A stretch of DNA of 39,092 nt from a virus, in IMG/VR virus record IMGVR_UViG_3300025426_000064, positions 1-39,092 of that record. One strand, 5' to 3'. The translations under genes were made by a program, and so were the position numbers. Positions 1-26,889 of the stretch are shown here, piece after piece (positions within the stretch are counted from its first letter, which is position 1; every line of letters begins with the position of its first letter). The notes below the pieces were generated by a model. It saw nothing but the letters and a program-made list of their open reading frames with translations. It ran no database searches and was not told where the DNA came from.

Positions 1-1048
1 CGTTAAGGTTTACTGTCCATGATGTGAATTCGCCAGAACCAACAACGTCACCCGGTGTGGTGCCAACTGTAAAGGCAAGTGCTCCGCCTTCTGGGTCGTA
101 TGAGTCAACAGTAGCAACTACATAGTGTGTGCTGTCGTTGGCAATAACAATTTCTTGTCCAGGTGTGTATGAAAGACCTGCTGCAACTGTAATGTCACCA
201 GAACCAGTAGCAAGTGTGTAGTCGCTTGAACTTGTTGTAGCGTACTTGTCAGACTGTCCTTGGTATCCCTGATAACCCTGAGGTCCTTGGTTGCCTTGGA
301 AGCCTTGAGGACCCTGGTCGCCCTGAAAACCTTGTGGACCCTGGTCACCCTGGAAGCCTTGATTTCCTTGGTCTCCCTGGAAGCCTTGTGTTCCGTCTTG
401 TCCCTGTGAACCTTGGTAACCCTGGTAACCCTTTTCACCTTGGAATCCTTGAAAACCACGGTCTCCTTGGAAACCTTGATTACCCTGTGTACCCTGGTCA
501 CCTTGGAAACCTTGTGTTCCTTGTAAACCAACTGAGGTAAAAAGAGTCCAGTCAGACGAGTTGGTGTCTGGTTCTTTATTCTTGTTTGTGTCGCTGGCAA
601 TGTAAGTTGAGCCGTCGGAGTAAGTTACAACGTCGTACGCATTGTATGTAGTACCTGGGTCCCAGTTGCCTTGATAGGCAAATCCTTGTCCTTGGAAACC
701 TTGATTACCTTGTGGTCCTTGGTCTCCTTGAAAACCCTGATTACCTTGGTCACCTTGAAAACCTTGTGGTCCTTGGTCGCCCTGGAACCCTTGAGGTCCG
801 TCATTTCCTTGATTACCTTGGTAACCTTGCGGTCCGGTTGAACCCTGGTTACCTTGGTTACCCTGGTCACCCTTAGAACCTTGTGGTCCCTGGTAGCCTT
901 GACTTCCTTGATTACCTTGTGAACCCTGCGAACCAGTGTCACCTTGTGTTCCTTGATTACCTTGGGGACCTTGGTCACCCTGGAAACCTTGAGCACCGAC
1001 TACTGCGGTAACCCAAGCGGACCCATTCCAATACTTTAATTGTGCCAT
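1..1048 (-). CDS. Collagen-like tail fibre, 3' end beyond window
   Basis: The frame is open from an ATG at 1048 to the left edge (349 complete codons), so the C-terminus is missing. The start has a good ribosome binding site (AAAGGAA, 7 bases upstream). After a short N-terminal segment (MAQLKYWNGSAWVTAVV), residues about 18-120 and 173-265 are Gly-X-Y collagen repeats. Gln sits in nearly every Y position and Phe, Tyr, Asp, Asn or Pro in X. Between them, about residues 121-172 form a non-collagen module with a YNAYDVVTYSDGSTY core. This resembles the small chitin/cellulose-binding modules (CBM5/12-like) and is closely related to a module in the upstream gene at 1204-3468. From about residue 265 a beta-rich C-terminal domain begins. 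The probable role is a trimeric fibre or decoration that reaches carbohydrates on the host. Collagen-like nature is certain; the virion position is inferred. Confidence 0.85.
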   Translation of the reverse strand, partial: MAQLKYWNGSAWVTAVVGAQGFQGDQGPQGNQGTQGDTGSQGSQGNQGSQGYQGPQGSKGDQGNQGNQGSTGPQGYQGNQGNDGPQGFQGDQGPQGFQGDQGNQGFQGDQGPQGNQGFQGQGFAYQGNWDPGTTYNAYDVVTYSDGSTYIASDTNKNKEPDTNSSDWTLFTSVGLQGTQGFQGDQGTQGNQGFQGDRGFQGFQGEKGYQGYQGSQGQDGTQGFQGDQGNQGFQGDQGPQGFQGDQGPQGFQGNQGPQGYQGYQGQSDKYATTSSSDYTLATGSGDITVAAGLSYTPGQEIVIANDSTHYVVATVDSYDPEGGALAFTVGTTPGDVVGSGEFTSWTVNLN

Positions 1049-1074
1049 GTGAATTCCTTTGAAAGAGAGATGAA

Positions 1075-1100
1075 ACAAACACTTTTGGCTATGTGTTTGT
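1075..1100 (-). terminator. AT-rich hairpin between collagen-like genes
   Basis: Perfect 8-base inverted repeat (ACAAACAC at 1075-1082, GTGTTTGT at 1093-1100) with a 10-base loop. On the minus strand it is followed by a pyrimidine-rich run but not a clean T tract. It lies between the promoter candidate at 1139-1166 and the ATG at 1048, so it would sit in the leader of the last fibre gene. It may be a leader hairpin or weak attenuator rather than a true terminator. Confidence 0.35.
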
Positions 1101-1138
1101 GTTTTACTACTTGGGTTACTACTATGAGAACTGTTGTG

Positions 1139-1166
1139 ATTTTATCACAAGTTTTCAAAATGTCCA
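1139..1166 (-). promoter_or_regulatory. Candidate promoter for the distal collagen-like fibre
   Basis: On the minus strand TGGACA (1161-1166; 5 of 6 to TTGACA) and TAAAAT (1139-1144; 5 of 6 to TATAAT) are separated by 16 bases. They lie in the longest gap of this part of the window (1049-1203), pointing at the gene starting at 1048. A palindrome, TTGTGAT-TTT-ATCACAA (1134-1150), overlaps the -10 box and could be an operator. The element ACTGGA at the -35 resembles the two other promoter candidates near 8640 and 13967. Confidence 0.5.
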
Positions 1167-1203
1167 GTATTTAACTGGGTTGTACTGCAATTACTGCGTT
1201 TTA

Positions 1204-3468
1204 CTACCTTGCAATTTCTGTAATTTTTACGTAAAAAGCACCGTCGGCAAGAACTACTAAGTTGTCATCTGCGGTTCCACGTTTTCCATTAACGGCAAGC
1301 GTGTATCCGGTTGTACTTCCGTTTGTGACACGCCCTGCTACTGGGAACAAAACACCACTTCTAGTTCCTCCGCCTAAGGCAGCAACAAAGATTTGATGTG
1401 TATAACCAATTTCAGCGCCGTTCCAAGTGAGGTTTACATAGAAATCGTCAGCCTGAGAACCACCGCCGTAGTTATAAACAGCGTATGCTTCAATAAAAAT
1501 GTACGAACTGTTTGATTTTGGCGTGTATGTTTTTGAAGCAATGGCGGAGTAAGTGGTTGAACTAGTTGAAAAGTTGCTAGTAAATCCCATTTCGCTAGCG
1601 TTCCAAATAGTCATGCTAATTACTTGACCAGCAGATGAACCATAAGTGCTTCCTTGTGCACCTTGTGCACCAGTTGCACCCTGATTACCTTGTGAACCTT
1701 GCGGACCCTGAGCACCAGTTGAGCCTTGTGCCCCCGTAGGGCCTTGAGTTCCATTGTTCCCCTGTGAACCCTGATAACCACGAGCGCCTTGATTGCCTTG
1801 TGTTCCCTGAGAACCTTGGGTTCCATTGGTACCATTTGCACCTTGTGCGCCCTGCGCACCGGTAGAGCCCTGATATCCCATTGCACCCTGTACGCCTTGC
1901 GGCCCTTGAGGACCTTGGTCACCTTGTGGTCCAGTTCCGGGAACTGTTTCATCAAGCCAAAGAATATTTTCATCAACCGGTGGAACGCCGTCGTCTGATT
2001 CATATATTCCTGGGTCACCAGTAAGACCTTGTGGGCCTTGTAAACCTAAATCTCCTTGAGGACCCTGTGCGCCATCGGCACCTTGAGGACCTTGTGAGCC
2101 ACCGCCTCCGCCCGAAGCACCTTGGGGTCCTTGAGCACCAGCAGAAGTAAACAAATACCAATCGCCAGTATTTAAAATTGGGTCAGGAAGTTGACCTGAT
2201 TCATCCGTAATGTACGTTGAACCATCTGAGGCTGTTACGACATCGTACGGATTGTAAGTTGAACCAGATACATAGTCACCTTGATAGGTGAACCCTTGTC
2301 CTTGAAAACCTTGTGCCCCATTATTTCCTTGAGGTCCTTGTAAACCATCGTTTCCTTGTGTGCCTTGCGCACCGTCGTTACCTTGAGCGCCATCATTTCC
2401 TTGAGCGCCCTGAATACCTTGAATACCAGATAGAGACATGTACCAATTAATTTGGTCTCCACTATTTGTACCTGTGTAGCCATCAATATAAACTTGAAAT
2501 GTAGTTGTTCCAACACCAAGAATTACATCTGAGATGTAACCCGTGTAAGAACATGACCCACCACTAACAATAAGGGTTACACGATTTGGAGACACATATG
2601 CGTCTGGACCATCAGTAACAGTAAATGTTGCAGTTTGATTTACAAAACTTCCATCTGTTGCAATTCCATCTGGTGAATTAATTACTGCTAAGTAAGTTGG
2701 GAATGAAGCACCAACGGTACCTTGTGTGCCCTGTGCCCCGTCGTTACCTTGTGGCCCCAAATCTCCTTGAGGACCTTGCGCACCGTCGGCACCCTGATAA
2801 CCTTGCGGACCTTGAGAACCGCCACCGGTACCTGGTTCACCCTGTGCACCTTGCGCTCCTTGCGAACCTTGTGTTCCGGTGCCAGTTGCACCCCGTGCTC
2901 CCTGAGGACCTTGTGAGCCCGTTCCTGGCACTCCTTGTGGGCCTTGTGTGCCAACGCCCTGGGCACCTTGAGGACCCTGAGCACCGTCAGCACCCTGCGC
3001 TCCTTGATAACCCTGAGCGCCCTGTCCACCTTGTCCACCTTGAAGCGCAGCAATAATTCCTTCGTTAAATTGAAGGCTTTCTACGGCAGAAGAAACGTGA
3101 AAGGTGTCGGAACTTTTTGTTTGTGTTGTTTGGTGATAGTGATGAGCAATAATAGTGCCGTCGTAACCACGACCATTTAAAACACCATCAGTCCAAACTG
3201 TAATAAAAGAATCTGCAATGCTAATTGCCGAACAAAGAATTTTTTCTTCATTGGCTTGTCCAAGATTTACAGCAATGACGAAAGGACCACGAGTACCCAA
3301 TGGGTTCGTGGTTGCCTGACCTGTGTCATCTACTTCATACCAACCAGCGGCATTAGAAATAGTTATAGTTTGATTTGTTGCGTAATAATCAGGTATGTCT
3401 GAAGTTATATACGCGCCTGGTACTGAACCACCGTACGAGCGAGGCGTAGTCTTGTCTGGATAAGCCAT
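1204..3468 (-). CDS. Collagen-like tail fibre with carbohydrate-binding-like module
   Basis: 754 residues. The ATG at 3468 follows AAGGAA at 6 bases. The N-terminal ~135 residues form a non-collagen, beta-rich domain that probably attaches to the virion. Gly-X-Gln collagen repeats (GPQGAQG type) start near residue 139. They are interrupted by a beta domain at about 254-346, by a module at about 391-439 (YNPYDVVTASDGSTY) closely related to one in the gene at 1-1048, and by a short acidic segment near 486-508. The last ~140 residues (from about 614) are a beta-sandwich-like head, in the place where C1q/TNF-type heads sit in other phage collagens. Such repeats are known to form trimeric rods in phage fibres. 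It follows the HNH gene by three bases and ends before a 155-base gap with a promoter candidate. The role as host-recognition or virion-surface fibre is inferred; the ligand is unknown. Confidence 0.88.
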   Translation of the reverse strand: MAYPDKTTPRSYGGSVPGAYITSDIPDYYATNQTITISNAAGWYEVDDTGQATTNPLGTRGPFVIAVNLGQANEEKILCSAISIADSFITVWTDGVLNGRGYDGTIIAHHYHQTTQTKSSDTFHVSSAVESLQFNEGIIAALQGGQGGQGAQGYQGAQGADGAQGPQGAQGVGTQGPQGVPGTGSQGPQGARGATGTGTQGSQGAQGAQGEPGTGGGSQGPQGYQGADGAQGPQGDLGPQGNDGAQGTQGTVGASFPTYLAVINSPDGIATDGSFVNQTATFTVTDGPDAYVSPNRVTLIVSGGSCSYTGYISDVILGVGTTTFQVYIDGYTGTNSGDQINWYMSLSGIQGIQGAQGNDGAQGNDGAQGTQGNDGLQGPQGNNGAQGFQGQGFTYQGDYVSGSTYNPYDVVTASDGSTYITDESGQLPDPILNTGDWYLFTSAGAQGPQGASGGGGGSQGPQGADGAQGPQGDLGLQGPQGLTGDPGIYESDDGVPPVDENILWLDETVPGTGPQGDQGPQGPQGVQGAMGYQGSTGAQGAQGANGTNGTQGSQGTQGNQGARGYQGSQGNNGTQGPTGAQGSTGAQGPQGSQGNQGATGAQGAQGSTYGSSAGQVISMTIWNASEMGFTSNFSTSSTTYSAIASKTYTPKSNSSYIFIEAYAVYNYGGGSQADDFYVNLTWNGAEIGYTHQIFVAALGGGTRSGVLFPVAGRVTNGSTTGYTLAVNGKRGTADDNLVVLADGAFYVKITEIAR

Positions 3469-8643: not shown

Positions 8644-8655
8644 GTATTTGTCTAG
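8636..8655. repeat. Two 9-base direct repeats at the -35 region
   Basis: TTTGTCTAG occurs at 8636-8644 and again at 8647-8655, 11 bases apart (about one helical turn). One copy covers the -35 box of the promoter at 8615-8643, and the other runs into the stop codon of the propeller fibre ending at 8652. The spacing is what a dimeric regulator or a repeated activator site would show; it could also be chance in an AT-rich gap. Confidence 0.4.
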
Positions 8656-9863
8656 TTAATTGTTGTTGGGCCTGCGTAGATACCGAAGTTTACAGGAAGT
8701 GCACCTGTTGTATATGAATACGAAGCAGCATTTGTAGAACCTCCATTTTGAACAGTTGCAAAAGTTCCATTACCATAAGCAATGCTTGACCAAGAATCAG
8801 AACTTGGCATGGTTGATGCAGTCCATGTTATTCCGTTTATTGACCTTGCTGCTGCTGTCGTACTTACTGCAACTGCAACAAAATAACCATTACCATAAGC
8901 AATGCTTTGCCAGGCTTGAGTGCTTGGCATTGAACCAGGAGTTGACCAAGATGTTCCGTTTGTTGAATACGTAAAGCCATAAGAATTATTGCCAACCATA
9001 ACAAATATATTATTCCCAAAAGCAGAATTAGACCATAATGCAGAATTGGGAATATTGGATAATGTCCAAGACGTTCCGTTAGTAGAATACGCAGCATCTC
9101 CAGAATTATTGTAAGACCCACAAACAAAATATCCTGTTGAACCTATGAGACCGTATGAAAGGCCTATCCAAGAATCTGCACTTGGCATAGTAGATGCAGT
9201 CCATGATGTACCATTTGTGCTGTACGCACCTGCGGTTGAAGCATTACCTTGTATGGCAACATAATAACCGTTACCGTAAGCAACGCCATTCCAAGAACGA
9301 TTACTTGGCATTGTTGAAGCAGTCCAAGTGGTTCCGTTTGTTGAGTATGCGGTTTTTGTAGAAGGCCCAGTTGCAACTGCAACAAAATAACCATTACCAT
9401 AAGCAATGCTTTGCCAATAAGCAGAACTAGGCATAGTTGATGCTGACCAAGAAGTTCCGTTTGTTGAATACGCACCGGCGGTTGTGCTTTGAGCAACTGC
9501 AACAAAATAACCATTACCATAAGCAATGCTTGACCAATAATCAGAACTTGGCATTGACCTTGCTGTAAAAGCAGAGGGAATTCCTGTGAAGGGCGTAGCC
9601 ACCGTAACGCTTGTGCTTGCCCCAAACGCTTTAGAGGCAACAACGGTGTTAGCCGGTACCGAGTATGCAGTTCCACCGACTGTAATTGTGGCTGGGTTGT
9701 CCGTAGCCGTAAGGTACGCAATACCACCGTTGCCGTTAACTGTTGTGGTGTAGGTTCCAACTGTAGTTAGTTCACCGTCAAGAAGAACGGAAGAAGCATT
9801 AACTGGAAGTATCGTACTGGTTGAAGAGCCGGTTGAAGGTGCTGGATATTGAGTGCTTGTCAT
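8652..9863 (-). CDS. Seven-repeat propeller tail fibre (copy 4)
   Basis: 403 residues. An N-terminal module of about 90 residues carries PVNASSVLLDGELTT and ATITVGGTAYSVPANT. Seven repeats follow of the type W..IAYGNGYFVAV....AYSTNGTSWTASTMPSS. Counting W-x2-(I/V/L)-x-(Y/F)-G cores gives seven, one of them (near SALWSNSAFGNN) diverged. The YSTNGTSW element resembles the Asp-box of BNR/sialidase-like beta-propellers with the Asp replaced. The C-terminus ends ALPVNFGIYAGPTTIN. A seven-bladed propeller is the simplest reading, and propellers of this kind bind sugars or proteins. The gene follows the preceding copy by 7 bases. The N-terminal module is nearly the same as in copy 3 (9871-11145), marking a recent duplication or exchange. 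Confidence 0.8.
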   Translation of the reverse strand: MTSTQYPAPSTGSSTSTILPVNASSVLLDGELTTVGTYTTTVNGNGGIAYLTATDNPATITVGGTAYSVPANTVVASKAFGASTSVTVATPFTGIPSAFTARSMPSSDYWSSIAYGNGYFVAVAQSTTAGAYSTNGTSWSASTMPSSAYWQSIAYGNGYFVAVATGPSTKTAYSTNGTTWTASTMPSNRSWNGVAYGNGYYVAIQGNASTAGAYSTNGTSWTASTMPSADSWIGLSYGLIGSTGYFVCGSYNNSGDAAYSTNGTSWTLSNIPNSALWSNSAFGNNIFVMVGNNSYGFTYSTNGTSWSTPGSMPSTQAWQSIAYGNGYFVAVAVSTTAAARSINGITWTASTMPSSDSWSSIAYGNGTFATVQNGGSTNAASYSYTTGALPVNFGIYAGPTTIN

Positions 9864-9870
9864 ATATTCC

Positions 9871-11145
9871 TTAGTTAACCGTTGTTGGGCCTGCGTAGAT
9901 ACCGAAGTTTACAGGCAAAACGTAATTTGCTGATTGTTGAAAATATGCTGCTGAGGTGCTTGGGTCTGCGGCTACTGCCATAAATTTTCCCGTAGAACCG
10001 TAACAGATTGCCCTCCAAATACCACTTGGGAAAGTTGAGGCAGTCCAAGTTGAACCGTTGGTTGAATACGCACCGGCAGTTGTTGCAGCATTATTATTGG
10101 TGCTAATGGCCACAAAGTAACCACCTCCGTAAACAACGCTATTAAAATACTGGGAAGGCATTGTAGAAGCCGACCATTGAGCACTTGTTGGGTCTATGGC
10201 GGTAAGGTATCTTGCTGACGTGCTTGCTGCATTGTTTACAGCAACCCAAATACCGTTACCGTATGCAACACCGGTCCATTGTAATTGTTGGTTAAATGCT
10301 AAATATGAAGTATCTGACCATGTAGCACCGGGTGTTATTACATCAATATATTGTTGAGTTGTATTGGTTTGTACAATAACCGTACCATTGGTTGCCAGTG
10401 CACCACCGTTCATAGCATATGTGGTGTTTCTTGTGGCCCAATTAATGCCGTCTGTACTATATGCCACTTGAGTAGAACCACCGGCTTCTCCTGCAACAAA
10501 TCCGGAAAAGGAGGGTGTTGAAACGTAAATTATTCTTTGCCAAAATTGATTACTTGGCATTGTTCCGGCAGTCCAAGTTATTCCGTTTGCACTATATGCG
10601 CTAGCGTTTCCGTAAGAACTAGAGTTGCCTTGAACCGCTACAAAAACATTGTTTCCGTAAGCAACTCCATACCAAGTGGAACTACTTGGCATTGTCATAG
10701 CGGTCCATGAGGTTCCGTCAGTGGAATATGCACCGGCGGTTGTGCCAGTATTAGAACTGCTACAACCTACAGCAACGTAGGTTCCGTTACCAAAAGTAAC
10801 GCTTCTCCAATATAAACTTGAAGAAAGTGTTGAACTTGTAAAAGTTGTTGGTGCACCTGAATATGACGCTACGTTTGCAGCAACGGTAACGCTTGTACTT
10901 GCGCCAAAAGCTTTAGAAGCAACAACAGTGTTAGCCGGTACTGAGTATGCAGTTCCACCGACTGTAATTGTGGCTGGATTTACGCTGGCAACAAGATAAG
11001 CCGGACTACCGTTGCCGTTGACTGTTGTGGTGTAGGTTCCAGCACTCGTAAGGCTTCCGTCAAGTATTACGCTAGAAGCGTTAACCGGCAGAACGGTGCT
11101 GGTTGATGACCCTGAACTTGGTACTGGGAATGTTGACTGACCCAT
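9871..11145 (-). CDS. Seven-repeat propeller tail fibre (copy 3)
   Basis: 424 residues. The N-terminal module is PVNASSVILDGSLTS followed by NPATITVGGTAYSVPANT, as in copy 4. The repeats are the most diverged of the four. SLYWRSVTFGNG, STWYGVAYGNN, FWQRIIYVST, a degenerate GGALATNG, LQWTGVAYGNG, FNSVVYGGG and IWRAICYGSTG make seven. Asp-box-like elements YSTDGTSW and YSTDGINW keep the Asp here, which supports the BNR-like propeller reading. It ends VLPVNFGIYAGPTTVN. It was probably made by duplication within the array and then altered in the blade loops. It lies 2 bases after copy 2. Confidence 0.8.
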   Translation of the reverse strand: MGQSTFPVPSSGSSTSTVLPVNASSVILDGSLTSAGTYTTTVNGNGSPAYLVASVNPATITVGGTAYSVPANTVVASKAFGASTSVTVAANVASYSGAPTTFTSSTLSSSLYWRSVTFGNGTYVAVGCSSSNTGTTAGAYSTDGTSWTAMTMPSSSTWYGVAYGNNVFVAVQGNSSSYGNASAYSANGITWTAGTMPSNQFWQRIIYVSTPSFSGFVAGEAGGSTQVAYSTDGINWATRNTTYAMNGGALATNGTVIVQTNTTQQYIDVITPGATWSDTSYLAFNQQLQWTGVAYGNGIWVAVNNAASTSARYLTAIDPTSAQWSASTMPSQYFNSVVYGGGYFVAISTNNNAATTAGAYSTNGSTWTASTFPSGIWRAICYGSTGKFMAVAADPSTSAAYFQQSANYVLPVNFGIYAGPTTVN

Positions 11146-11147
11146 AA

Positions 11148-12332
11148 TTACGCCCTAACCGTTGCGCCGTTGTAGATACCGTAGGCGACTGGGAGTGATG
11201 GAAATGCGTAGTAAGCACTTGCGGATGTGGTTTGAGAAACTGCAACAAAGTAACCGTTTCCGTATGTAACACTAGACCAGTTAGAACTACTTGGCATTGT
11301 TAAAGCAGTCCAAGTTGTTGCGTTCGTACTGTATGCACCGGCGGTTGTGCCATTTGCAACAGCAACAAAGTAGCCATTACCGTAGGTGACGCCAGTCCAG
11401 TTAGAAGAACTAGGCATAGTGCTGGCAGTCCAAGTTGTGCCGTTTGTTGAGTATGCACCGGCGGTTGTAGTTCCGTAAGCAACTGCAACAAAGTAACCGT
11501 TTCCATAACCAACGCCAATCCAATAAGAGGCACTAGGCATTGTAGAAGCAGTCCATGAAGTTCCGTTTGTTGAATATGCACCGACTGTTGTACTGTCTGC
11601 AACTGCAACAAAGTAACCGTTACCGTAAGTAACCGCTTCCCAACTATTACTATTTGGCAGTGTACGAGCAGTCCAGTTAATTCCGTCGGTTGAAGATGCA
11701 CTGACGGTTGAGCTGTTAGCTACTGCAACGTAGTAACCGTTGCCATAAGTAACGCCGTACCAACCAGAAGAAGCCGACATTGTGGAAGCAGTCCACGTTG
11801 TACCGTTAGTACTGTATGCTCCGGAAGAGGTCGAAATTGCAACCGCAACAAACTTTCCATTACCGTAAGTGACGCTGTACCAGTTAGAAGAACTAGGCAT
11901 GGTACTGGCAGTCCACGTTGTACCGTTTGTTGAATATGCGCCTGCGGTTGTTGCTGACCGTTGAACAGCAACAAAATAACCGTTACCATAAATAACACTA
12001 TTCCAGTAAGAATTACTAGGCATCGTAGAAGCAGAAAAAGTTGAGGGTGCTGCAGTAGGTCCATTTACAGTAACGCTCTGACTACCTGTATACGCAGACG
12101 TACCAACCGTAGAACCGGCAGTAACGGTGTAAGGAGTACCAGCAATAGTTATAGTTGTTGGCCCTGCTCCGTTGGCATAGAGAAGCCAGGGTGCGCCAGT
12201 GCCAGTCACGCTCGTTGTGATTGATGATGCCGTGACCAACTGTCCATCTAGCAGAACGCTAGAGGCTGAGGCTGGTGGTTGCGAACTGTAACTTGCCCCC
12301 GCTGAAGGAACTGGATAAACGCTATTTCCCAT
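11148..12332 (-). CDS. Seven-repeat propeller tail fibre (copy 2)
   Basis: 394 residues, the most regular copy. The N-terminal module (ASSVLLDGQLVTAS, then TTITIAGTPYTVTAGS) is shared with copy 1. The seven cores are YWNSVIYGNG, NWYSVTYGNG, GWYGVTYGNG, SWEAVTYGNG, YWIGVGYGNG, NWTGVTYGNG and NWSSVTYGNG, spaced about 40 residues apart and separated by YSTNGTTWTASTMPS elements. The protein ends with SLPVAYGIYNGATVRA. The near-identity of repeats at both protein and DNA level makes slippage or recombination between blades likely. Role: a probable receptor-binding or surface-decorating fibre. Confidence 0.82.
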   Translation of the reverse strand: MGNSVYPVPSAGASYSSQPPASASSVLLDGQLVTASSITTSVTGTGAPWLLYANGAGPTTITIAGTPYTVTAGSTVGTSAYTGSQSVTVNGPTAAPSTFSASTMPSNSYWNSVIYGNGYFVAVQRSATTAGAYSTNGTTWTASTMPSSSNWYSVTYGNGKFVAVAISTSSGAYSTNGTTWTASTMSASSGWYGVTYGNGYYVAVANSSTVSASSTDGINWTARTLPNSNSWEAVTYGNGYFVAVADSTTVGAYSTNGTSWTASTMPSASYWIGVGYGNGYFVAVAYGTTTAGAYSTNGTTWTASTMPSSSNWTGVTYGNGYFVAVANGTTAGAYSTNATTWTALTMPSSSNWSSVTYGNGYFVAVSQTTSASAYYAFPSLPVAYGIYNGATVRA

Positions 12333-12341
12333 ATATATTCC

Positions 12342-13604
12342 TTAGTGAGTGGCTGTTGGGCCGTTGTAGATACCGTAGGCGACTGGGGTGAGTGCTGTAA
12401 AAGCGTAGTATGCGCCATTAGTGGAATTAGTTGTACCTCCTAAAACAGAAAATACACCATTACCATACGCTCCGCATTTCCAGTTATCGGAACTTGGCAT
12501 TGTTGAGGCAGTCCACGTTGTGCCGTTGGTTGAATAGGCGCCAGTGCTTGTATTTGCAACCGCAGTTACAAAATAACCATTTCCGTATGTAACAAAATAG
12601 TACGGACTGGTATAGGGCATTGTTCCTGATGACCAAGACGTGCCGTTGGTAGAGTAATAATAAGTAGCGGTAAGTCCATCAGCTTGTGTAGCAACAAACG
12701 TTCCGTTGCCGTAAGCAGAACCAGTAAATTGTTTTCCTGACCCAGTTGCACCAGAACCAGCAGTCCAGGTTGTCCCGTTGGTTGAATAGGCAGTAGGGTT
12801 CCCAGCATTATCATCGCCAAGTGCAACAAAAATACCGTTTCCATAAGTACAGGTGTACCATTTTCCACTTGGTAAAGTTGCAGCAGTCCAAGATGTTCCG
12901 TTAGTTGAATAAGAGGCTGACGTAGTAGCGCCACCACCAGAACTTCTTGGTACTGCAACAAAATAAGTAGTTCCACCAATAGACCCTGATGTAACACCGT
13001 TCCATGCCCTAGATGCTGAAAGTGATGCAGAAGTCCATGTTGTTCCGTTTGCTGAATAATTAGCAATAGTTGCATTAGTGTCATTAGCACCACCAGAAAC
13101 CGCAACAAATAAACCATTGCCATAGGTAACGCCCGACCAATAGGCTGAGCTTGCCATAGTCATTGTTGACCAAGTTGTGCCGTTGGTAGAATAAATACCA
13201 GCATTTGTTGTTGAACTCCAACCTCTTAATCCAACAAATGTTCCGTTACCAAATGCCATAGCGTAATAAGGTAATGAAGCTGAATTAGGAACTGTCATAG
13301 CAGAAAAAGTAGATGGCGTTCCTGTGTAACTCGCCCCTACAGTAACGCTTTGGCTACCGGTGTACGCAGATGTACCTACGGTAGAGCCAGCAGTAACGGT
13401 GTAGGGAGTACCAGCAATGGTGATAGTTGTAGTTCCTGCTCCGTTGGCATAAAGAAGCCAGGACGCGCCGGTACCCGTGACGGTAGTTGAATAAGAACTT
13501 GAGTTTACTAGGGAGCCGTCAAGTAAGACACTGGAAGCATTCGCCGGTGGCTGAGAACTGTAACTTGCCCCCGCAGAGGGTGTGGGGAAAGTAGACTGGC
13601 CCAT
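12342..13604 (-). CDS. Seven-repeat propeller tail fibre (copy 1)
   Basis: 420 residues. The N-terminal module is very close to copy 2 (ASSVLLDGSLVNSS, TTITIAGTPYTVTAGS). Seven repeat cores are visible: PYYAMAFGNG, YWSGVTYGNG, AWNGVTSGSIGG, KWYTCTYGNG, QFTGSAYGNG, YYFVTYGNG and NWKCGAYGNG. They alternate with YSTNGTTW-type elements. The C-terminus (TPVAYGIYNGPTATH) matches copy 2. It is the first of the four in transcription order, two bases after the 100-residue gene, and would share the promoter candidate at 13942-13969. Confidence 0.81.
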   Translation of the reverse strand: MGQSTFPTPSAGASYSSQPPANASSVLLDGSLVNSSSYSTTVTGTGASWLLYANGAGTTTITIAGTPYTVTAGSTVGTSAYTGSQSVTVGASYTGTPSTFSAMTVPNSASLPYYAMAFGNGTFVGLRGWSSTTNAGIYSTNGTTWSTMTMASSAYWSGVTYGNGLFVAVSGGANDTNATIANYSANGTTWTSASLSASRAWNGVTSGSIGGTTYFVAVPRSSGGGATTSASYSTNGTSWTAATLPSGKWYTCTYGNGIFVALGDDNAGNPTAYSTNGTTWTAGSGATGSGKQFTGSAYGNGTFVATQADGLTATYYYSTNGTSWSSGTMPYTSPYYFVTYGNGYFVTAVANTSTGAYSTNGTTWTASTMPSSDNWKCGAYGNGVFSVLGGTTNSTNGAYYAFTALTPVAYGIYNGPTATH

Positions 13605-16190: not shown

Positions 16191-18860
16191 TTACAAACCA
16201 CTGTAAGCAGTAAGGGCATTTGTAAACATCACACCATTAACAACGTTTGCTATTGGAAGTTGAGCAATACCATCCATAACAATATCGTTAGTTGAATAAC
16301 TTCCAAGAATTGGGTAAGAAGTTTTAATTTGAACGCTAGTAATACTTGCAACGCCAGGAACAGAAGAAATAATTCCCGATATGTCAAAAATTCTAATTGC
16401 GTTAGAAGAACCATCCCAGTATGGTGGTGTATTTCCTCCACCACCCCATGTAGCTGGGCTTAAGAATGAACGTATTGCACTATTAACCGTTGATTGAACA
16501 GCAGAAGCTGTGTACCCAGGGGCAACATAAGCAGTCCAGGAAACGTCAATTGGAACATAATTTGGTTTAATTGATTGAACGGAGAAATTTATTTCTCTTC
16601 GCGCTTGTAAATAGTCAGTTAAATTGTCGGCAATTGTGTCACTTACAGCAAAACCATTTGAATCAATTGGTGCAACCGTTACCGTGCGCGCATAATTAAA
16701 CGTTGACGGGGCGTAAAGACCACCCTGTGTCCAGAAGTAATTATCTTGTTCGTATTCTGGAAGATTTAAAAAAGTGTAAGAACCAGACTCAACACCAATA
16801 TTTGAAACAATTACACTTGAACCAAGCGGAACATTAAGACCACTTGCAAAAACAACCTCAACTTGAACATCTTTTTCAGAAGAAAGATTAAATGTTGCAA
16901 CAATAGTTTCTTCATTTGCTGCATTTGGTGTAATAGTCGCAAGAACGGAATTAGTGTTTGCATCCACAACCTTAACCGAAACGTCGGCAAAAGTAACGCC
17001 AGCATAAGTTGCATCAATGTTTGCAAAAAGTGTGTACGTTCTTGTTGTTCCCGTTGAGTCATCAGTAAGATTTGAAAGATTAAAAATTTGAGAATAAACA
17101 GTTTTGTCACTGCCAAGTGCAGTTCCGGTTCCAAGGTATTGAACACCATAATTTGGAAGACAGTTAATACCAGACGGCATTGACCATGGCATGCTTCCAT
17201 TTCCCCAACTAGCACCAGTTCCGTTTACAATATTGTAATTGCTAAAAGTTGCGTCAGGAATAAAATTGTAGGAGCTTGTTGTAAGCGTTTGACTGTCTGT
17301 TAAAGAAAAATCTAAACCAACACCGTTTAATGAATTGTAAAAAATTTTGTGAGTTTTGCTTGTTGTTGCGTTAGCGAAAGCAATGTACGTTTGAATTGAT
17401 GTAACGTAAGCATCAAGGTTTGCATAAACACTAGAAACACCTGGGTCGTATGTTAACCCGGTGGATGTTCCCGTGTTGTTTGCAAGAATTTTGCAAGTAA
17501 TGGTTTTAGGCGATGCAGTGTATGTGTACAAAGAGTCTGAAAATTGTGGTGCTGAAGAAAATGTTCTTTTTGAACCATCAATGTACGTTGCAACGGAAAC
17601 AACGTACGGTTTTGCGGTTGCGTTTGTTTCTGCAGCGGAACCAGCGGCTTGAATTACAGCAGCCGATTGGTACCACGTTGAATTAGATGCAAGTCCTGTA
17701 ATGTTTGGAAGAATTGTTCCCTGAAGCTGTGTAACTGTTGCGGTTGTTGGATGAGCATAAATAAATCCAGGTGCATCAATTGTTAGTGTTTGTTTTCCAC
17801 CAGACGCAGCAGATGCAGCAGTAACAACAACAATTTCATCACCATTAATGTCATCTTCAATGTAAATAAGTGATGGATTTGCAGAACTAATTGTTGTACT
17901 AAATCCTGTTGTTGTTACAATAATCGAACTTGCCCCAGCTGAAACTGCCGTTTGTACTGGAGCGGCATTAACTGGAGCATTAGAAGATGATGTAAATTGA
18001 AGATAATTATTTGGAGACGTTCCCGAAGTTTTAATTGAAGGAAGTGTTGCCGTTCCGTTTCCAAAAGTTGACCAACCAGTTGGTGCAGAATTAGAAGTTG
18101 CGTACGTTGTAAAATTTGCATCAGCAGCGGTTAAACGATTTGTATATGGATTAAATCCATCAAAAGCAAATGCCCTATAAACGCCATTGTAACTTTGAGA
18201 AAACAAAGCATAGTCACTTGGCGTAATTGGGCGTGGCGCTAAAAGTTGAAGTTCATTAGTTAAACGATTCAAAAAATCAACTGTTGTTTCTGGGTCAACA
18301 CCAAGAGTTAGTGTCGTATTTGTTGCGTATGTTCCTGTAATAATAATGTTTGAAATTGTTGGATTTGGCGTTGTTAACTCAAGGTATGTAGTTAAAGGGT
18401 TAAATCCGGAAATATTTTGAATGTTGTAAATTGAACCTGATTCAACAGCCTGCATTGTTATGTCTGCTGTTGAGTAACCTGCAGCAATTGTTGTGTCGTT
18501 GAGTGTTTGAAACTGATAAGCAGCTCCACCGTAAAAAAATCCAGCAATAGTTCCTGCTGGAATCGTGTATCCAGGGCTGGATGCAGAAGAAACAAGACTC
18601 CATGTTGTTGTTATGGTTGCGGCGGCACCAGCGTTTGGTGTAATTCCAATAAGCGAACCAAAGTATTCAAAAATTGTGTCAGGAACGTTAGAAGCAACAT
18701 CGTTTGCCTCGGCAATCATTTGTGCAAATTGCTCAAGTAAAAGTACTTCTAAATTACCTTCTCTTGGAACCCAACCAGGAAGATTGGAAGCAATGTTTGA
18801 TAGTGCTTGTTGTACAAGAACATCGCTGTCCGTAACTACTGGAATGTTAATGTAAGCCAT
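16191..18860 (-). CDS. Baseplate J-like wedge protein with large insertion
   Basis: 889 residues. Residues 1-235 match the baseplate J/gp47 family. GNLEVLLLEQFAQMIAEAND is the N-terminal helix, IPAGTIAGFF and AVESGSIYNIQNISG mark the beta core, and DPETTVDFLNRL with RPITPSDYALF marks the family helix region. The core resumes near residue 722 with FNYARTVTVAPIDSNG and continues through LTDYLQARREINFSV to the end. Between them about 470-480 residues are inserted, containing jelly-roll-like sequence (ATFSNYNIVNGTGASWGNG). Related proteins are often 300-400 residues, so this is more than twice the usual length. Its start overlaps the stop of the gp25-like gene (TAATG). It forms the baseplate wedge that triggers sheath contraction. 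Confidence 0.85.
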   Translation of the reverse strand: MAYINIPVVTDSDVLVQQALSNIASNLPGWVPREGNLEVLLLEQFAQMIAEANDVASNVPDTIFEYFGSLIGITPNAGAAATITTTWSLVSSASSPGYTIPAGTIAGFFYGGAAYQFQTLNDTTIAAGYSTADITMQAVESGSIYNIQNISGFNPLTTYLELTTPNPTISNIIITGTYATNTTLTLGVDPETTVDFLNRLTNELQLLAPRPITPSDYALFSQSYNGVYRAFAFDGFNPYTNRLTAADANFTTYATSNSAPTGWSTFGNGTATLPSIKTSGTSPNNYLQFTSSSNAPVNAAPVQTAVSAGASSIIVTTTGFSTTISSANPSLIYIEDDINGDEIVVVTAASAASGGKQTLTIDAPGFIYAHPTTATVTQLQGTILPNITGLASNSTWYQSAAVIQAAGSAAETNATAKPYVVSVATYIDGSKRTFSSAPQFSDSLYTYTASPKTITCKILANNTGTSTGLTYDPGVSSVYANLDAYVTSIQTYIAFANATTSKTHKIFYNSLNGVGLDFSLTDSQTLTTSSYNFIPDATFSNYNIVNGTGASWGNGSMPWSMPSGINCLPNYGVQYLGTGTALGSDKTVYSQIFNLSNLTDDSTGTTRTYTLFANIDATYAGVTFADVSVKVVDANTNSVLATITPNAANEETIVATFNLSSEKDVQVEVVFASGLNVPLGSSVIVSNIGVESGSYTFLNLPEYEQDNYFWTQGGLYAPSTFNYARTVTVAPIDSNGFAVSDTIADNLTDYLQARREINFSVQSIKPNYVPIDVSWTAYVAPGYTASAVQSTVNSAIRSFLSPATWGGGGNTPPYWDGSSNAIRIFDISGIISSVPGVASITSVQIKTSYPILGSYSTNDIVMDGIAQLPIANVVNGVMFTNALTAYSGL

Positions 18861-19549
18861 TAGGCGCCGCCTGTGTTCTTAATTTTTAGATTTAATGTTG
18901 CTTGATTGTTGTCCGTATAATTAACATCAATGTCAACAACGGCACGAGGTTCCCAACTCGAAAGTTCTTTTTTAATTTTTGCAATGTTTAATTCAGAAAA
19001 TGGAAGGTCATCAACCCCGTACCCAGGTACTGCCGTTCTTTGACCTTTGTCTGTTCCCATAAATATAGAAACACTATTTGATATTTCTTCGTAAGAATCT
19101 TGTGGGTTTGTAATAAACTGACCAAATTGGTCAACAACCAAGTTATTTGCAAAATGAGGTTGACTGTATCTTTTTGTTTTTTGATTAGGAAAAACAGAGA
19201 TTGTCGTTGCAATACTTTCAACGCCAGTTGAATCTATGTGACTAATATAAAATGCAACAGAATTTGGTGAAATTAAATTTTGTTCCAAAAGTTGCTTGTA
19301 CGTTGCCCAGGGAAGTTCGTATGAATTAACGGGCGGCGTAAGCGAATTTGTTGACGTAGATATGTTGTAAACAAGACTAGAATTTAATGTTGAAACAAGA
19401 TTCCAAAATGGTTGAAATTCACTTGTTTGTTGAAGCAAGTATATTTCATATTTTGAATTAACTGTTACGTCTGCTGCCGCTGTCCATTGAATTTTTATTC
19501 CAGTATTTTCAACCCAGTTAGCCGTAAGGTTTGTAATTGGTTCAGCCAT
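18860..19549 (-). CDS. Baseplate wedge protein: FN3-like domain fused to gp25/gpW-like domain
   Basis: 229 residues. The N-terminal ~115 residues read as an FN3-like beta sandwich (NWVENTGIKIQWTAAADVT, then SKYEIYLLQQ). The C-terminal half carries the gp25/P2 W pattern. ISNSVSIFMGTDKGQRTAVP and GYGVDDLPF (about 155-184) are followed by a helix (NIAKIKKELSSWEPRAVVDI) and a closing beta strand. gp25-like proteins are normally about 100-140 residues without an FN3 part. Adjacent to the J-like gene, as expected of the wedge pair. The gp25 assignment is firm; the FN3 assignment is by pattern. Confidence 0.8.
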   Translation of the reverse strand: MAEPITNLTANWVENTGIKIQWTAAADVTVNSKYEIYLLQQTSEFQPFWNLVSTLNSSLVYNISTSTNSLTPPVNSYELPWATYKQLLEQNLISPNSVAFYISHIDSTGVESIATTISVFPNQKTKRYSQPHFANNLVVDQFGQFITNPQDSYEEISNSVSIFMGTDKGQRTAVPGYGVDDLPFSELNIAKIKKELSSWEPRAVVDIDVNYTDNNQATLNLKIKNTGGA

Positions 19550-20803
19550 TTAAATTCCTAGTCTGCCTCCTTGGCGCTCACCACCCTTAAGAGCAATAAG
19601 GTTGGCGTTTACGTAGGAGATGTTGTGTTGTTTGTGCCAGTCGCTTGGAAAATACGTCTGAAGCACAGTTGCTTGAAAATTCATTTTTAGTTCTGGAACA
19701 TACTTGCGGTAATTTTCGTCTGCAAAATACCAGAATGAATTTTCGTTATAAAAACTATTGTGCGTTGGGTCTTGGAATGCTCCACGACCATCTGTGCTTG
19801 GTGTAAGGCTTAGAACCATTCCACCATGAGCAAGAACTCGGTACATTTCATTCCAAAGGCGAACCTTGTCTGGAATGTGTTCTAGAAAATCAACGGCGCG
19901 AATAACGCCAACCGTATTGTCATCAAGACTTTCAAGAATGTCAAATACGTCACCAACAAGGTCTGCTGGTTCGTGCATGTCTAATGTTGCATATCCTGGT
20001 GTTGGATTGTGTGCAGCACCCATGTCAATTGCCATAAGGTTGTTACGCTTTGCCCAAGCCAAAAGAAGTGGTTGAATGTTTTTGTCACGCATGCGAACTG
20101 TTTCCGTTTGAATAAACGGATTGATGTCAGACTTTGCCTGTGTGTTTTCTGGGTGTACGCGTTGAAGGTAAAGGTTCTTCTTGATGTGATAGAAATCACC
20201 TTGAATAAACATCTTGCACATAATGTCTTGGTCGTCCAAGACTTTCATGTCTTTGTTGTATCCTTCTGTTGCTCGATAAGCATCGGCACGGAAAGAACGA
20301 ATATGGTTTGGTGCATACCAAATTAGTGAAACGTTGTGGGGACTTGGCGCAAGACCGTGGCAAACATTGTAGCCATCTTCTTCGTGGTATTCCCAACCAA
20401 ACGAAGCATCGTATTTGCTAAAGTTTGGTGTTCCATCTGCATTGATGTAAGAAAAATCTGAGTAAACAAAAACAACATTTGGATTTTTGTCAAATGCTTT
20501 TTGTATTTCTTCTAATGCGGTGGGCATAAGAATGTCATCGTGGTCTAGTTCAACCAGGATGTCACCAGAACAAAGTTCAACAGCGTATCGCTTAAGTGCT
20601 CCTACTTTTCCACCTAGTTGTGGTTTGGCATAAGCAACTTTAACACGGTCGTCGTACTCTGGTCTAGACCATTCGGCTTTGCCGTTTAAAACAACAATCC
20701 ATTCCCAGGCTTCGTTGGTTTGAGATTTTAGACTCTCATATGCCTCATCGAGGTATTTGGGGTCGTGACTAGGTGTAAAAATGCTCAGCATAGTAAGAAG
20801 CAT
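19550..20803 (-). CDS. Family 2-like glycosyltransferase fused to a SAM-dependent methyltransferase
   Basis: 417 residues. Residues 1-250 are a GT-A glycosyltransferase of family 2 type. The start is MLSIFTPSHDPKYLDEAYES, followed by WEWIVVLNG, the nucleotide-sugar/metal motif VELDHDD (84-90), and VLDDQD (188-193) at the catalytic-base position. Residues 250-417 are a class I methyltransferase. The SAM-binding loop is AIDMGAAHNPTPGYATLD (258-275), with DFLEHIPD (305-312) and LAHGGMVLSLTPSTDG (324-339) as later motifs. The gene sits in the same direction between the spike-like and gp25-like baseplate genes. No clear ribosome binding site precedes either ATG (20803 or 20791), so translation may be weak. 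It could modify virion proteins, or host surface or DNA sugars; the substrate is unknown. Confidence 0.82.
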   Translation of the reverse strand: MLLTMLSIFTPSHDPKYLDEAYESLKSQTNEAWEWIVVLNGKAEWSRPEYDDRVKVAYAKPQLGGKVGALKRYAVELCSGDILVELDHDDILMPTALEEIQKAFDKNPNVVFVYSDFSYINADGTPNFSKYDASFGWEYHEEDGYNVCHGLAPSPHNVSLIWYAPNHIRSFRADAYRATEGYNKDMKVLDDQDIMCKMFIQGDFYHIKKNLYLQRVHPENTQAKSDINPFIQTETVRMRDKNIQPLLLAWAKRNNLMAIDMGAAHNPTPGYATLDMHEPADLVGDVFDILESLDDNTVGVIRAVDFLEHIPDKVRLWNEMYRVLAHGGMVLSLTPSTDGRGAFQDPTHNSFYNENSFWYFADENYRKYVPELKMNFQATVLQTYFPSDWHKQHNISYVNANLIALKGGERQGGRLGI

Positions 20804-20830
20804 ACACCCATTTTAAAAAATTTCAAGTAT

Positions 20831-21253
20831 TTAGGTAGGGTTTATAAATGCTGTTATAATTCCATTTTTAAAAGTAAGCGAACCATTTGAACCACCGGAA
20901 GATATTGCTTTAAGTGTAACCGTTCCAGTGGCGCCATTGTGTGACCAATTAACAAAAGAATGAACAATTGGGTTGTTATTTTGGTCAAATGTTACCGTTG
21001 CTGTTGTTCCCAATGGTGGAGCAGTTGAGCCAGGATAAGGTAATGGTCCCCACACCGAATTTGAACTAATTGCAGAAATAACAATAGTCATCTGACCGGT
21101 TGGAATTGGCGGTGGACTTAAATGAGCAACAGAAACGTCTGTTTGAACAACCTTGGCGTAATAGGTCCCAGTGTATTGGTCTGCATCTGTGTTGTAATTG
21201 TATTGCGTTCTAAGGATTTGTTGAAGATTTGCATTTGAGCTAGTGCTTCTCAT
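20831..21253 (-). CDS. Probable OB-fold baseplate spike/hub protein
   Basis: 140 residues. The pattern TYYAKVVQTDVS...GQMTIVISAI...GPLPYPGSTAPPLGTTATVTF...NPIVHSFV resembles the small OB-fold domains of central spike proteins (gp5 N-terminal and gpV-like). These begin with a strand running into the P-x-P-P-x-G turn and a closing strand. No lysozyme domain and no spike beta-helix is visible, so this would be the hub-proximal part only. Gene order after the hub and LysM genes supports a baseplate role. The assignment is by fold pattern and position. Confidence 0.55.
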   Translation of the reverse strand: MRSTSSNANLQQILRTQYNYNTDADQYTGTYYAKVVQTDVSVAHLSPPPIPTGQMTIVISAISSNSVWGPLPYPGSTAPPLGTTATVTFDQNNNPIVHSFVNWSHNGATGTVTLKAISSGGSNGSLTFKNGIITAFINPT

Positions 21254-21255
21254 GT

Positions 21256-22452
21256 CTATACAATCTTTGCAGTTATAAGCGGGAATCCAGGTAAAGGAGC
21301 AGATGTAGGCTGTAAAACTTGAGAAAACGGCATTGGAACCTGAAGTGTTAATGATGCCTGTGGGAGGTACATATCTCTCATCATTCCAGAAACCATCCAG
21401 TAGCCACTTCCTGGGCCAAGGTTTGTAACGTGAACAATTTCACCTAAGTTAAATTGCCAATTGTCCAACATGCAAGTAACCGTTGCCTGAGCATAAGGTT
21501 TTCCAACGTCCCAGTCGTAATCAATAAGTTGAACTGTGTCGCTAAATTCTTTTATTTCTTGAATTTTTGCTCCGGGATTAAATTTTTGATTAATTGGTGG
21601 AACAGCCGCACCTTGTTTGTTTTTTGTAAGTAAACCTAACCAATATTCATCAGGACCAAAATGAATAATGTTTTCATCTTCCCACAAACGCCAACCAACT
21701 CCTGATGCAATACGACTCATTGCTGACCAGGAATCTTCAGCGGAATCTGCTGTGGTTCCACGACCAAGACCAACTTTAACAATTGCTTTTTTAGAATTAC
21801 CAACAAGTTTAGACCAAACAGTAGCGTAATTTGCAGATTGTACCGATATTTTGTGACCAGCTGCAAGATATTTGTTTGGAGCAGTAGCAAGGCCGGTAAT
21901 GAATTCGGTAACTTGAGTACTTACGGTGTTTGTAATTAAACCCCTTTGATTTCTCAAAGTATAAACAGCTTCCGATTCAAAAACCAGTTGAATTTGGTCA
22001 GAGGCTTTCATAAACTGAACAAGAACAAAATTAAGTTGTTGTCCGTCTTCAACAATTGTTACTGTTGTTCCTTGAGAAATAATTCCACCATCGCCAATGC
22101 TTTTAATAAGTTGGCGGTTTGGGTCGGTCATTTGAATGGTTAAAGTAGAGGGACCAATTATTGTTTTTTGAAGAAGAACATTGTTTACACCGGCCCTAAA
22201 GTTAACGTCAATGTTTGTTGTTTTTCCAGTTTTTGGATTTGTAAATTGTAAATATTCAAGTGCAAAAGGACCAAATCCAGACGTTATTGAAACGTTTCCA
22301 ACCGCTGGCGGGGTTTTTACAGCAGTATTTGTTAATGGTTTTCCTGGAACAATTACACCAATGCCACCATTAGCGCCTCCAGTAGAAACTGTGGCAGAGT
22401 TTGATTTTGGTGCGCCCGTTTTGGCAGTTGCTGATTTAGTATTTGTTGTCAT
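21256..22452 (-). CDS. Baseplate hub protein (gp27/XkdQ-like)
   Basis: 398 residues. A Thr/Ala/Gly-rich N-terminal linker (about 65 residues) precedes a beta-rich body. LQFTNPKTGKTTNIDVNFRA and IGPSTLTIQMTDPNRQLIKS, followed by ISQGTTVTIVEDGQQLNFVL, give the tandem beta-barrel pattern of hub proteins such as P2 gpD, T4 gp27 and PBSX XkdQ. The middle (WSAMSRIASGVGWRLWEDEN) matches the late-control-D style helix that precedes the second barrel. The C-terminal part (YAQATVTCMLDNWQFNLGEI) is another beta domain. It sits directly after the LysM gene, the usual XkdP-XkdQ order. Family assigned by pattern and context. Confidence 0.68.
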   Translation of the reverse strand: MTTNTKSATAKTGAPKSNSATVSTGGANGGIGVIVPGKPLTNTAVKTPPAVGNVSITSGFGPFALEYLQFTNPKTGKTTNIDVNFRAGVNNVLLQKTIIGPSTLTIQMTDPNRQLIKSIGDGGIISQGTTVTIVEDGQQLNFVLVQFMKASDQIQLVFESEAVYTLRNQRGLITNTVSTQVTEFITGLATAPNKYLAAGHKISVQSANYATVWSKLVGNSKKAIVKVGLGRGTTADSAEDSWSAMSRIASGVGWRLWEDENIIHFGPDEYWLGLLTKNKQGAAVPPINQKFNPGAKIQEIKEFSDTVQLIDYDWDVGKPYAQATVTCMLDNWQFNLGEIVHVTNLGPGSGYWMVSGMMRDMYLPQASLTLQVPMPFSQVLQPTSAPLPGFPLITAKIV

Positions 22453-26833: not shown

Positions 26834-26865
26834 AAAAAAACCGCTACCCCGAAAAGAGGTAGCGG
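26834..26865 (-). terminator. Intrinsic terminator before the tape measure gene
   Basis: On the minus strand CCGCTACC, a 9-base loop, GGTAGCGG, then seven T residues. The stem is 26841-26848 with 26858-26865, and the T run is 26834-26840. This is the best terminator match in the window. It lies 13 bases before the tape measure ATG, so it should reduce rather than block tape measure transcription. Confidence 0.85.
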
Positions 26866-26889
26866 CTTAGCCGCCCATGTGGTTGGGCG
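26862..26889 (-). promoter_or_regulatory. Mutually exclusive hairpins upstream of the terminator
   Basis: Two small stems precede the terminator on the minus strand. The first is CGCCC (26885-26889) / GGGCG (26872-26876) with an 8-base loop. The second is GCGGC (26870-26874) / GCCGC (26862-26866) with a TAA or TTA loop. The second shares bases with the first and with the terminator stem, so it cannot form together with either. The arrangement is that of an attenuator: hairpin two would prevent the terminator, hairpin one would favour it. The geometry is seen directly; regulation is inferred. Confidence 0.4.

What the first reader, a model, noticed from the sequence alone, without database searches (positions are those of the whole stretch)
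19550..20803. Glycosyltransferase-methyltransferase fusion inserted in the baseplate operon
A two-domain enzyme (GT-A with LDHDD; SAM-binding loop IDMGAAHNPTPGY) lies between spike-like and gp25-like structural genes, in line with them and without a visible ribosome binding site. Placement inside the baseplate block, not with DNA-modification or host-takeover genes, suggests that it acts on virion parts such as the fibres or capsid, or on host surface sugar. A coupled transfer and O-methylation of a sugar would give a capped glycan. That would be a self-contained virion or surface glycosylation system.
Basis: partly seen in the sequence, partly recalled or inferred. Interest (0 to 1): 0.68.

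Follow-up and report, generated by a model that had tools for sequence, protein, structure and literature searches.

The report
Phage sugar-transferase fused to methyltransferase
A gene in this phage's tail-base cluster makes one enzyme that should attach a sugar and then methylate something; it moves between phages and bacteria, and in bacteria it sits beside collagen-like surface proteins, so it probably decorates fibre-like proteins, though no target has been shown.

Summary
Window 19550-20803, minus strand, encodes a GT2 glycosyltransferase fused to a class I SAM methyltransferase, between a spike-like protein and gp25. The likely start is 20791, 4 codons in. The model is confident (pLDDT 95.5). 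DHDD, DD, DxG, LEH and DPxH residues are retained in nearly all of 60 relatives down to 40% identity.

At least 14 phage records carry it at this site. It is not a fixed baseplate gene: over 550 viral stretches encode relatives, many on the replication side of the genome, beside fibre genes or, in cyanophage S-CRM01, near psbA. The window and L003 copies differ at 9% of fourfold sites, against 22-65% in other genes, so the gene was recently exchanged alone.

The best new clue is cellular. In Actinomycetota, 6 of 8 fusion genes lie beside a collagen-like gene, usually with a TPR gene between (chance about 4e-11 for a comparable count). In phages the link is weaker: close gene spacing (p=0.002), but a lineage-matched control shows no co-occurrence.

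Best reading: a mobile fibre-decorating enzyme, most likely acting on collagen-like proteins (confidence 0.4). Host-surface glycan modification is the main rival. Virion glycosylation, donor sugar and methylated atom are untested.

The parts
19550..20803 (-). GT-MT fusion ORF (417 aa as called; 413 aa from the likely start at 20791)
20042..20791 (-). Glycosyltransferase domain (GT2, GT-A fold), residues 1-250
   Evidence: Pfam PF00535; sequence and fold match to chondroitin polymerase K4CP 2z86
20534..20545 (-). DHDD metal/nucleotide-sugar motif (residues 83-86)
   Evidence: D83, D85, D86 invariant and H84 nearly so in 60 sequences
20231..20236 (-). DD of LDDQD, candidate catalytic base region (residues 186-187)
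   Evidence: invariant in 60 sequences; role inferred from GT2 family knowledge
19553..20041 (-). Class I SAM methyltransferase domain, residues 251-413
   Evidence: PF08241; model pLDDT 92.5; Foldseek class I methyltransferases
19991..20029 (-). SAM-binding loop IDMGAAHNPTPGY
   Evidence: D256 and G258 at least 90%, D271 and E304-H305 invariant
19760..19771 (-). DPTH motif (residues 341-344), possible methyl-acceptor site
   Evidence: D341, P342, H344 invariant; role inferred
20799..20826 (-). Promoter-like TTGAAA-16-TATGCT, 7 nt before the likely start
   Evidence: consensus match only
20831..21253 (-). Spike-like 140-aa protein; its homologue in L003 carries a collagen-like extension of about 46-51 triplets, and in L030 one of 9
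18860..19549 (-). gp25-like baseplate wedge protein
16191..18860 (-). Baseplate J-like protein
21256..22452 (-). Hub-like protein (assignment by position; no family match)
   Evidence: conserved neighbour
1204..3468 (-). Collagen-like fibre protein, candidate substrate
   Evidence: PF01391; triplet composition
2..1078 (-). Collagen-like fibre protein (cut by record end), candidate substrate
   Evidence: PF01391; triplet composition

Best explanation
It is a soluble two-step enzyme, carried as a mobile gene by phages and some Actinomycetota, that decorates fibre-like proteins, most likely collagen-like (Gly-X-Y) ones. The GT-A domain would transfer a sugar from a nucleotide-sugar to the protein (probably Ser or Thr) or to a first sugar on it, and the methyltransferase domain would methylate and cap that glycan. 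In this phage the candidate substrates are the collagen-like fibres at 2-3468 and possibly the spike or other tail proteins made from the same late gene block. Shown here: the fusion, intact motifs, confident fold, gene mobility, conserved site in one phage lineage, and tight linkage to collagen-like genes in bacteria. Inferred: the substrate, the sugar, the methylated position, and the benefit to the phage (fibre stability, altered adsorption or evasion).
For: Fold and motifs. Same site in related phages. In Actinomycetota the fusion is beside a collagen-like gene in 6 of 8 genomes (G001, G020, G407, G426, G440, G657), as is a GT-only homologue in G258, usually collagen then TPR then GT-MT; chance about 4e-11 for 6 of the 8 genomes tested. 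In phage loci with collagen-like genes, the nearest is within 2 genes in 15 of 20, against 8.7 expected, p=0.0018. The L003 spike next to the gene carries a collagen extension. A 31% identical GT domain in Peribacillus lies in a cluster with collagen-like and BclB-related genes. The protein is soluble, with no hydrophobic segment.
Against: Lineage-matched control: among ERF-bearing freshwater phage records, collagen-like genes occur in 2 of 5 with the gene and 6 of 15 without it, so mere co-occurrence in phages is not evidence. About 30 phage loci carry it beside replication genes with no collagen gene near, and S-CRM01 has it near psbA. Adjacency to fibres could reflect insertion hotspots. 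Spacing within one gene is not significant (p=0.18). Cellular clusters could be partly inherited linkage. No peptide or glycan data exist.
Confidence: 0.4

Rival explanations
1. It modifies a host surface glycan, such as a wall polymer or exopolysaccharide, adding a methyl-capped sugar that blocks adsorption of competing phages or alters the receptor.
For: The GT domain resembles polysaccharide and wall-polymer enzymes (K4CP, TarS, TarP, RmlT, TuaG). In G029 the fusion lies near genes that look like dTDP-sugar synthesis. Two bacterial clusters include a YfhO membrane protein. The literature usually assigns phage glycosyltransferases to this role (PMC7029224, PMC10202952).
Against: No membrane segment and no flippase or GtrA-type partner recognised in the window genes scanned. 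Surface modification for superinfection exclusion would be expected early, whereas this copy sits inside late baseplate genes. It does not explain the collagen linkage in bacteria.
Confidence: 0.27
2. It glycosylates and methylates other virion proteins (spike, baseplate, fibre or capsid) without any preference for collagen-like ones.
For: Late baseplate position; fold similarity to the Che8 glycosyltransferase, a phage reported to have a glycosylated capsid (PMC11256854).
Against: The collagen link in bacterial clusters would be unexplained; several homologues sit outside structural blocks.
Confidence: 0.18
3. It is a cargo (moron) gene acting on small metabolites or host glycolipids, unconnected to the neighbouring structural genes.
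For: Transfer of the gene alone, possible own promoter, varied genomic positions including near psbA in S-CRM01.
Against: Fixed site across at least 14 records, and intact motifs in all lineages; linkage to collagen-like genes in bacteria.
Confidence: 0.1
4. It modifies phage DNA bases.
For: Proposed in the literature for glycosyltransferases of freshwater actinophages (PMC10202952).
Against: The GT domain resembles polysaccharide-type enzymes rather than DNA glucosyltransferases. Bacteria carry it in collagen clusters. No base-modification gene was recognised in the window, which covers only the structural block.
Confidence: 0.05

Closest known systems
Synechococcus phage S-CRM01 SCRM01_090c (YP_004508523.1)
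   Same: Full-length fusion of the same two domains, 40% identical over 98% of the query
   Different: Lies among psbA, hli and small hypothetical genes, not in the baseplate block; annotated only as 'glycosyl transferase' or 'methyltransferase'
Mimivirus L230 (glucosyltransferase fused to lysyl hydroxylase)
   Same: A viral two-domain enzyme that glycosylates viral collagen-like protein (PMC9614988)
   Different: Different partner domain and acceptor; L230 uses hydroxylysine, and the collagen-like triplets here have very little lysine
BclA-type glycosylation clusters of Bacillaceae
   Same: Glycosyltransferases beside collagen-like spore proteins; a homologous GT domain (31%) occurs in such a cluster in Peribacillus; the BclA glycan bears O-methylated anthrose (PMC9614988)
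   Different: Many separate enzymes; no full-length fusion in 348 sampled genomes of the phylum of a Selenomonadaceae genome
Che8 phage glycosyltransferase and virion glycosylation
   Same: GT-A enzyme of a phage reported to have glycosylated major capsid proteins (PMC11256854)
   Different: Fold match only (12% identity), no clear shared methyltransferase, capsid target
E. coli K4 chondroitin polymerase (KfoC, 2z86)
   Same: Best solved relative of the GT domain (E 1.5e-22 by profile, 1.1e-14 by fold)
   Different: Polysaccharide synthase with two GT domains and no methyltransferase

Membership tests
Glycosyltransferase family 2 (PF00535) | Profile match above cut-off and GT-A fold | tested here: met
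   45.8 bits against cut-off 23.3; fold matches K4CP, SpsA, TarP
Glycosyltransferase family 2 (PF00535) | DXD-type motif and acidic catalytic residue | tested here: met
   D83, D85, D86, D186, D187 invariant in 60 sequences
Class I SAM methyltransferase (PF08241) | Profile match, Rossmann fold, DxG and acidic residue after strand 2 | tested here: met
   26.2 bits against cut-off 21.2
Sugar O-methyltransferase | Methyl transfer to a sugar hydroxyl | not testable with these tools
   AtmM and RebM are among many weak, unspecific matches
Phage virion glycosylation system | Glycan on virion protein | not testable with these tools
   Needs mass spectrometry
Collagen-like protein glycosylation system | Genetic linkage to collagen-like gene | tested here: met
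   Bacteria: 6 of 8 fusion genomes, plus a GT-only homologue. Phages: 15 of 20 within two genes, p=0.0018
Collagen-like protein glycosylation system | Co-occurrence with collagen-like genes beyond lineage background in phages | tested here: not met
   2 of 5 with the gene, 6 of 15 without; the contrast with random viral records (25/37 v 2/27) is confounded by lineage
Mimivirus L230-type collagen glycosylation | Lysine or hydroxylysine acceptor | tested here: not met
   Lysine 0-8% of triplets, mostly 0-2%
Gtr-type O-antigen modification | Membrane-anchored GT with GtrA flippase partner | tested here: not met
   No hydrophobic segment; no such neighbour recognised
Moron (independently mobile phage gene) | Gene-level horizontal transfer with different relatedness from flanks | tested here: met
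   4-fold differences 9% v 22-65%; L006/L027 nested in the window clade but in another genomic place
Moron (independently mobile phage gene) | Own promoter and terminator | tested here: inconclusive
   Promoter-like site only; no terminator, stop abuts gp25 start

The most novel reading that the evidence does not exclude
A mobile GT-methyltransferase family shared by Actinomycetota and their phages glycosylates and methyl-caps collagen-like fibres in both, a prokaryotic counterpart of mimivirus collagen glycosylation, and marks a previously undescribed bacterial collagen-TPR-GTMT surface system.
Probability: 0.33. Interest if true: 0.72.

Novelty: new variant of a known kind. Interest (0 to 1): 0.48.

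Why it matters
Phage glycosyltransferases are usually assigned to DNA or host-surface modification without a target. Here conserved bacterial gene clusters point to a specific, testable substrate class, collagen-like fibres. If true, it would explain how common collagen-like phage fibres are modified, and would describe a glycan-decorated collagen surface system in little-studied freshwater Actinomycetota.

Tried and rejected
1) Record-level co-occurrence with collagen-like genes looked strong against random viral records (25 of 37 v 2 of 27, p 8e-7), but vanished in a lineage-matched control, so it is not used as evidence. 2) The G029 PF01391 hit 2.4 kb away was discounted: GC-rich low-complexity, and no Gly-X-Y run found by pattern search there. 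3) Baseplate J as query to find an empty site: all five loci and the window still carry the fusion. 4) A PADLOC defence role: no match. 5) Named family for the whole fusion: none in Pfam, PHROGs or NCBIfam, only separate domains. 6) Papers: no description of this fusion found in eight searches of the held open-access library, which lacks most subscription journals. 7) The methyltransferase fold search did not narrow the substrate. 8) The Freeman 2023 virion glycosylation paper is not held; it is known here only through PMC11256854.

Full report
What is there. The window is an IMG/VR virus record of 39,092 bases. All major genes read on the minus strand and form a contractile-tail structural block: portal, capsid, sheath, tube, tape measure, LysM protein, hub-like protein, 140-aa spike-like protein, the finding, gp25, baseplate J, fibres and two collagen-like fibres. 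The finding is a 417-codon ORF with GT2 and Methyltransf_11 domains. All orthologues align from M[IL]SIFTP, so 20791 is the likely start. AlphaFold2 with 60 sequences gives pLDDT 95.5 and pTM 0.92. D83, D85, D86, D186, D187, D271, E304, H305, D341, P342 and H344 are invariant in 60 sequences, and D256 and G258 are present in at least 90%. The best solved relative of the GT part is K4 chondroitin polymerase. The methyltransferase part is an ordinary class I fold whose substrate cannot be told.

Distribution and mobility. Close relatives lie between the spike-like gene and gp25 in the window, in 13 loci with gp25 directly downstream (L002 is nearly identical to the window) and in L134. A profile scan found at least 554 viral stretches encoding a relative; the 80 best were kept. 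Their contexts fall into three main groups: the baseplate site; about 30 loci between a phosphoesterase and Cas4-like and ERF genes; and loci next to collagen-like fibre genes (the replication-gene names are read from sequence). Cyanophage S-CRM01 has a 40% identical fusion near psbA. Between the window and L003 the gene is 96% identical in DNA with 9% fourfold-site differences, while the other genes compared give 22-65%. L006 and L027 sit inside the window clade in the tree but in another genomic place. Bacterial copies are interleaved with viral ones. The gene therefore moves on its own.

The collagen lead. In Actinomycetota the fusion is uncommon (5 of 396 genomes had a match, one of them split), but where present it is beside a collagen-like gene in 6 of 8 full-length cases, and a GT-only homologue in G258 is too. 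The usual order is collagen-like, TPR protein, GT-MT; Pfam confirms TPR in four genomes and YfhO in two. Of the two exceptions, G172 has a TPR-like gene and then the contig ends, and G029 lies near genes that look like dTDP-sugar synthesis (read from sequence, not scanned). With two to seven collagen loci per genome, six or more of eight by chance has a probability near 4e-11, under rough assumptions on gene placement and treating genomes as independent; that set of eight includes G258 and not G657. A 31% identical GT domain lies in a Peribacillus plasmid cluster with collagen-like and BclB-related genes.

In phages the evidence is mixed. Among 52 dereplicated loci, 20 have collagen-like genes in the flanks; the nearest is within two genes in 15, against 8.7 expected (p=0.0018), but within one gene the excess is not significant (p=0.18). 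Records with the gene contain collagen-like genes far more often than random viral records (25/37 v 2/27), but within one ERF-bearing freshwater lineage the rates are equal (2/5 and 6/15). That contrast is therefore lineage or habitat, not function. The collagen-like triplets have mostly glutamine at Y, some Ser and Thr, and very little lysine, so the acceptor would not be hydroxylysine as in mimivirus L230 (PMC9614988).

Mechanism. Most likely (0.4): sugar transfer to a collagen-like or related fibre protein, followed by methylation of the glycan. Expression with late genes fits: the stop abuts the gp25 start, and a promoter-like element lies just before the likely start, though the promoter match alone is within chance. 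The main rival (0.27) is host-surface glycan modification, which the GT relatives (wall-polymer and capsule enzymes) and phage literature suggest. No step of the chemistry has been tested.

Novelty. The fusion is already deposited in S-CRM01 under generic names. No family model covers it, and the held literature did not describe it. I therefore call it a new variant of a known kind.

Noticed in passing
window 8652-13604 (-): Four tandem paralogous adhesin-like ORFs (8652-9863, 9871-11145, 11148-12332, 12342-13604), pairwise about 35-57% identical, three with EPTP repeat hits: a likely duplicated receptor-binding array.
   Followed up: partly
L011 1-9001; L116; L117; L118; L127: Bacterial cluster of collagen-like protein, TPR protein, GT-MT fusion and, in G001 and G407, a YfhO membrane protein; apparently an undescribed actinobacterial surface system.
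   Followed up: partly
L003 6753-7973: The spike-like protein carries a collagen-like extension of about 46-51 triplets directly upstream of the fusion gene, absent from the window's 140-aa version.
   Followed up: partly
window 26838-26868 (-): Strong terminator-like hairpin (13 pairs, 7 GC) just upstream of the tape measure gene, suggesting a transcript boundary there.
   Followed up: no
window 34139-36502 (-): 787-aa protein with DUF6582 and double zinc-ribbon matches, between portal and major capsid genes.
   Followed up: no
L084 7980-9248: Fusion copy on a 105-kb 'viral' contig that groups with actinobacterial copies (G426, G172); the contig may be host or prophage DNA, or a recent exchange.
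   Followed up: no
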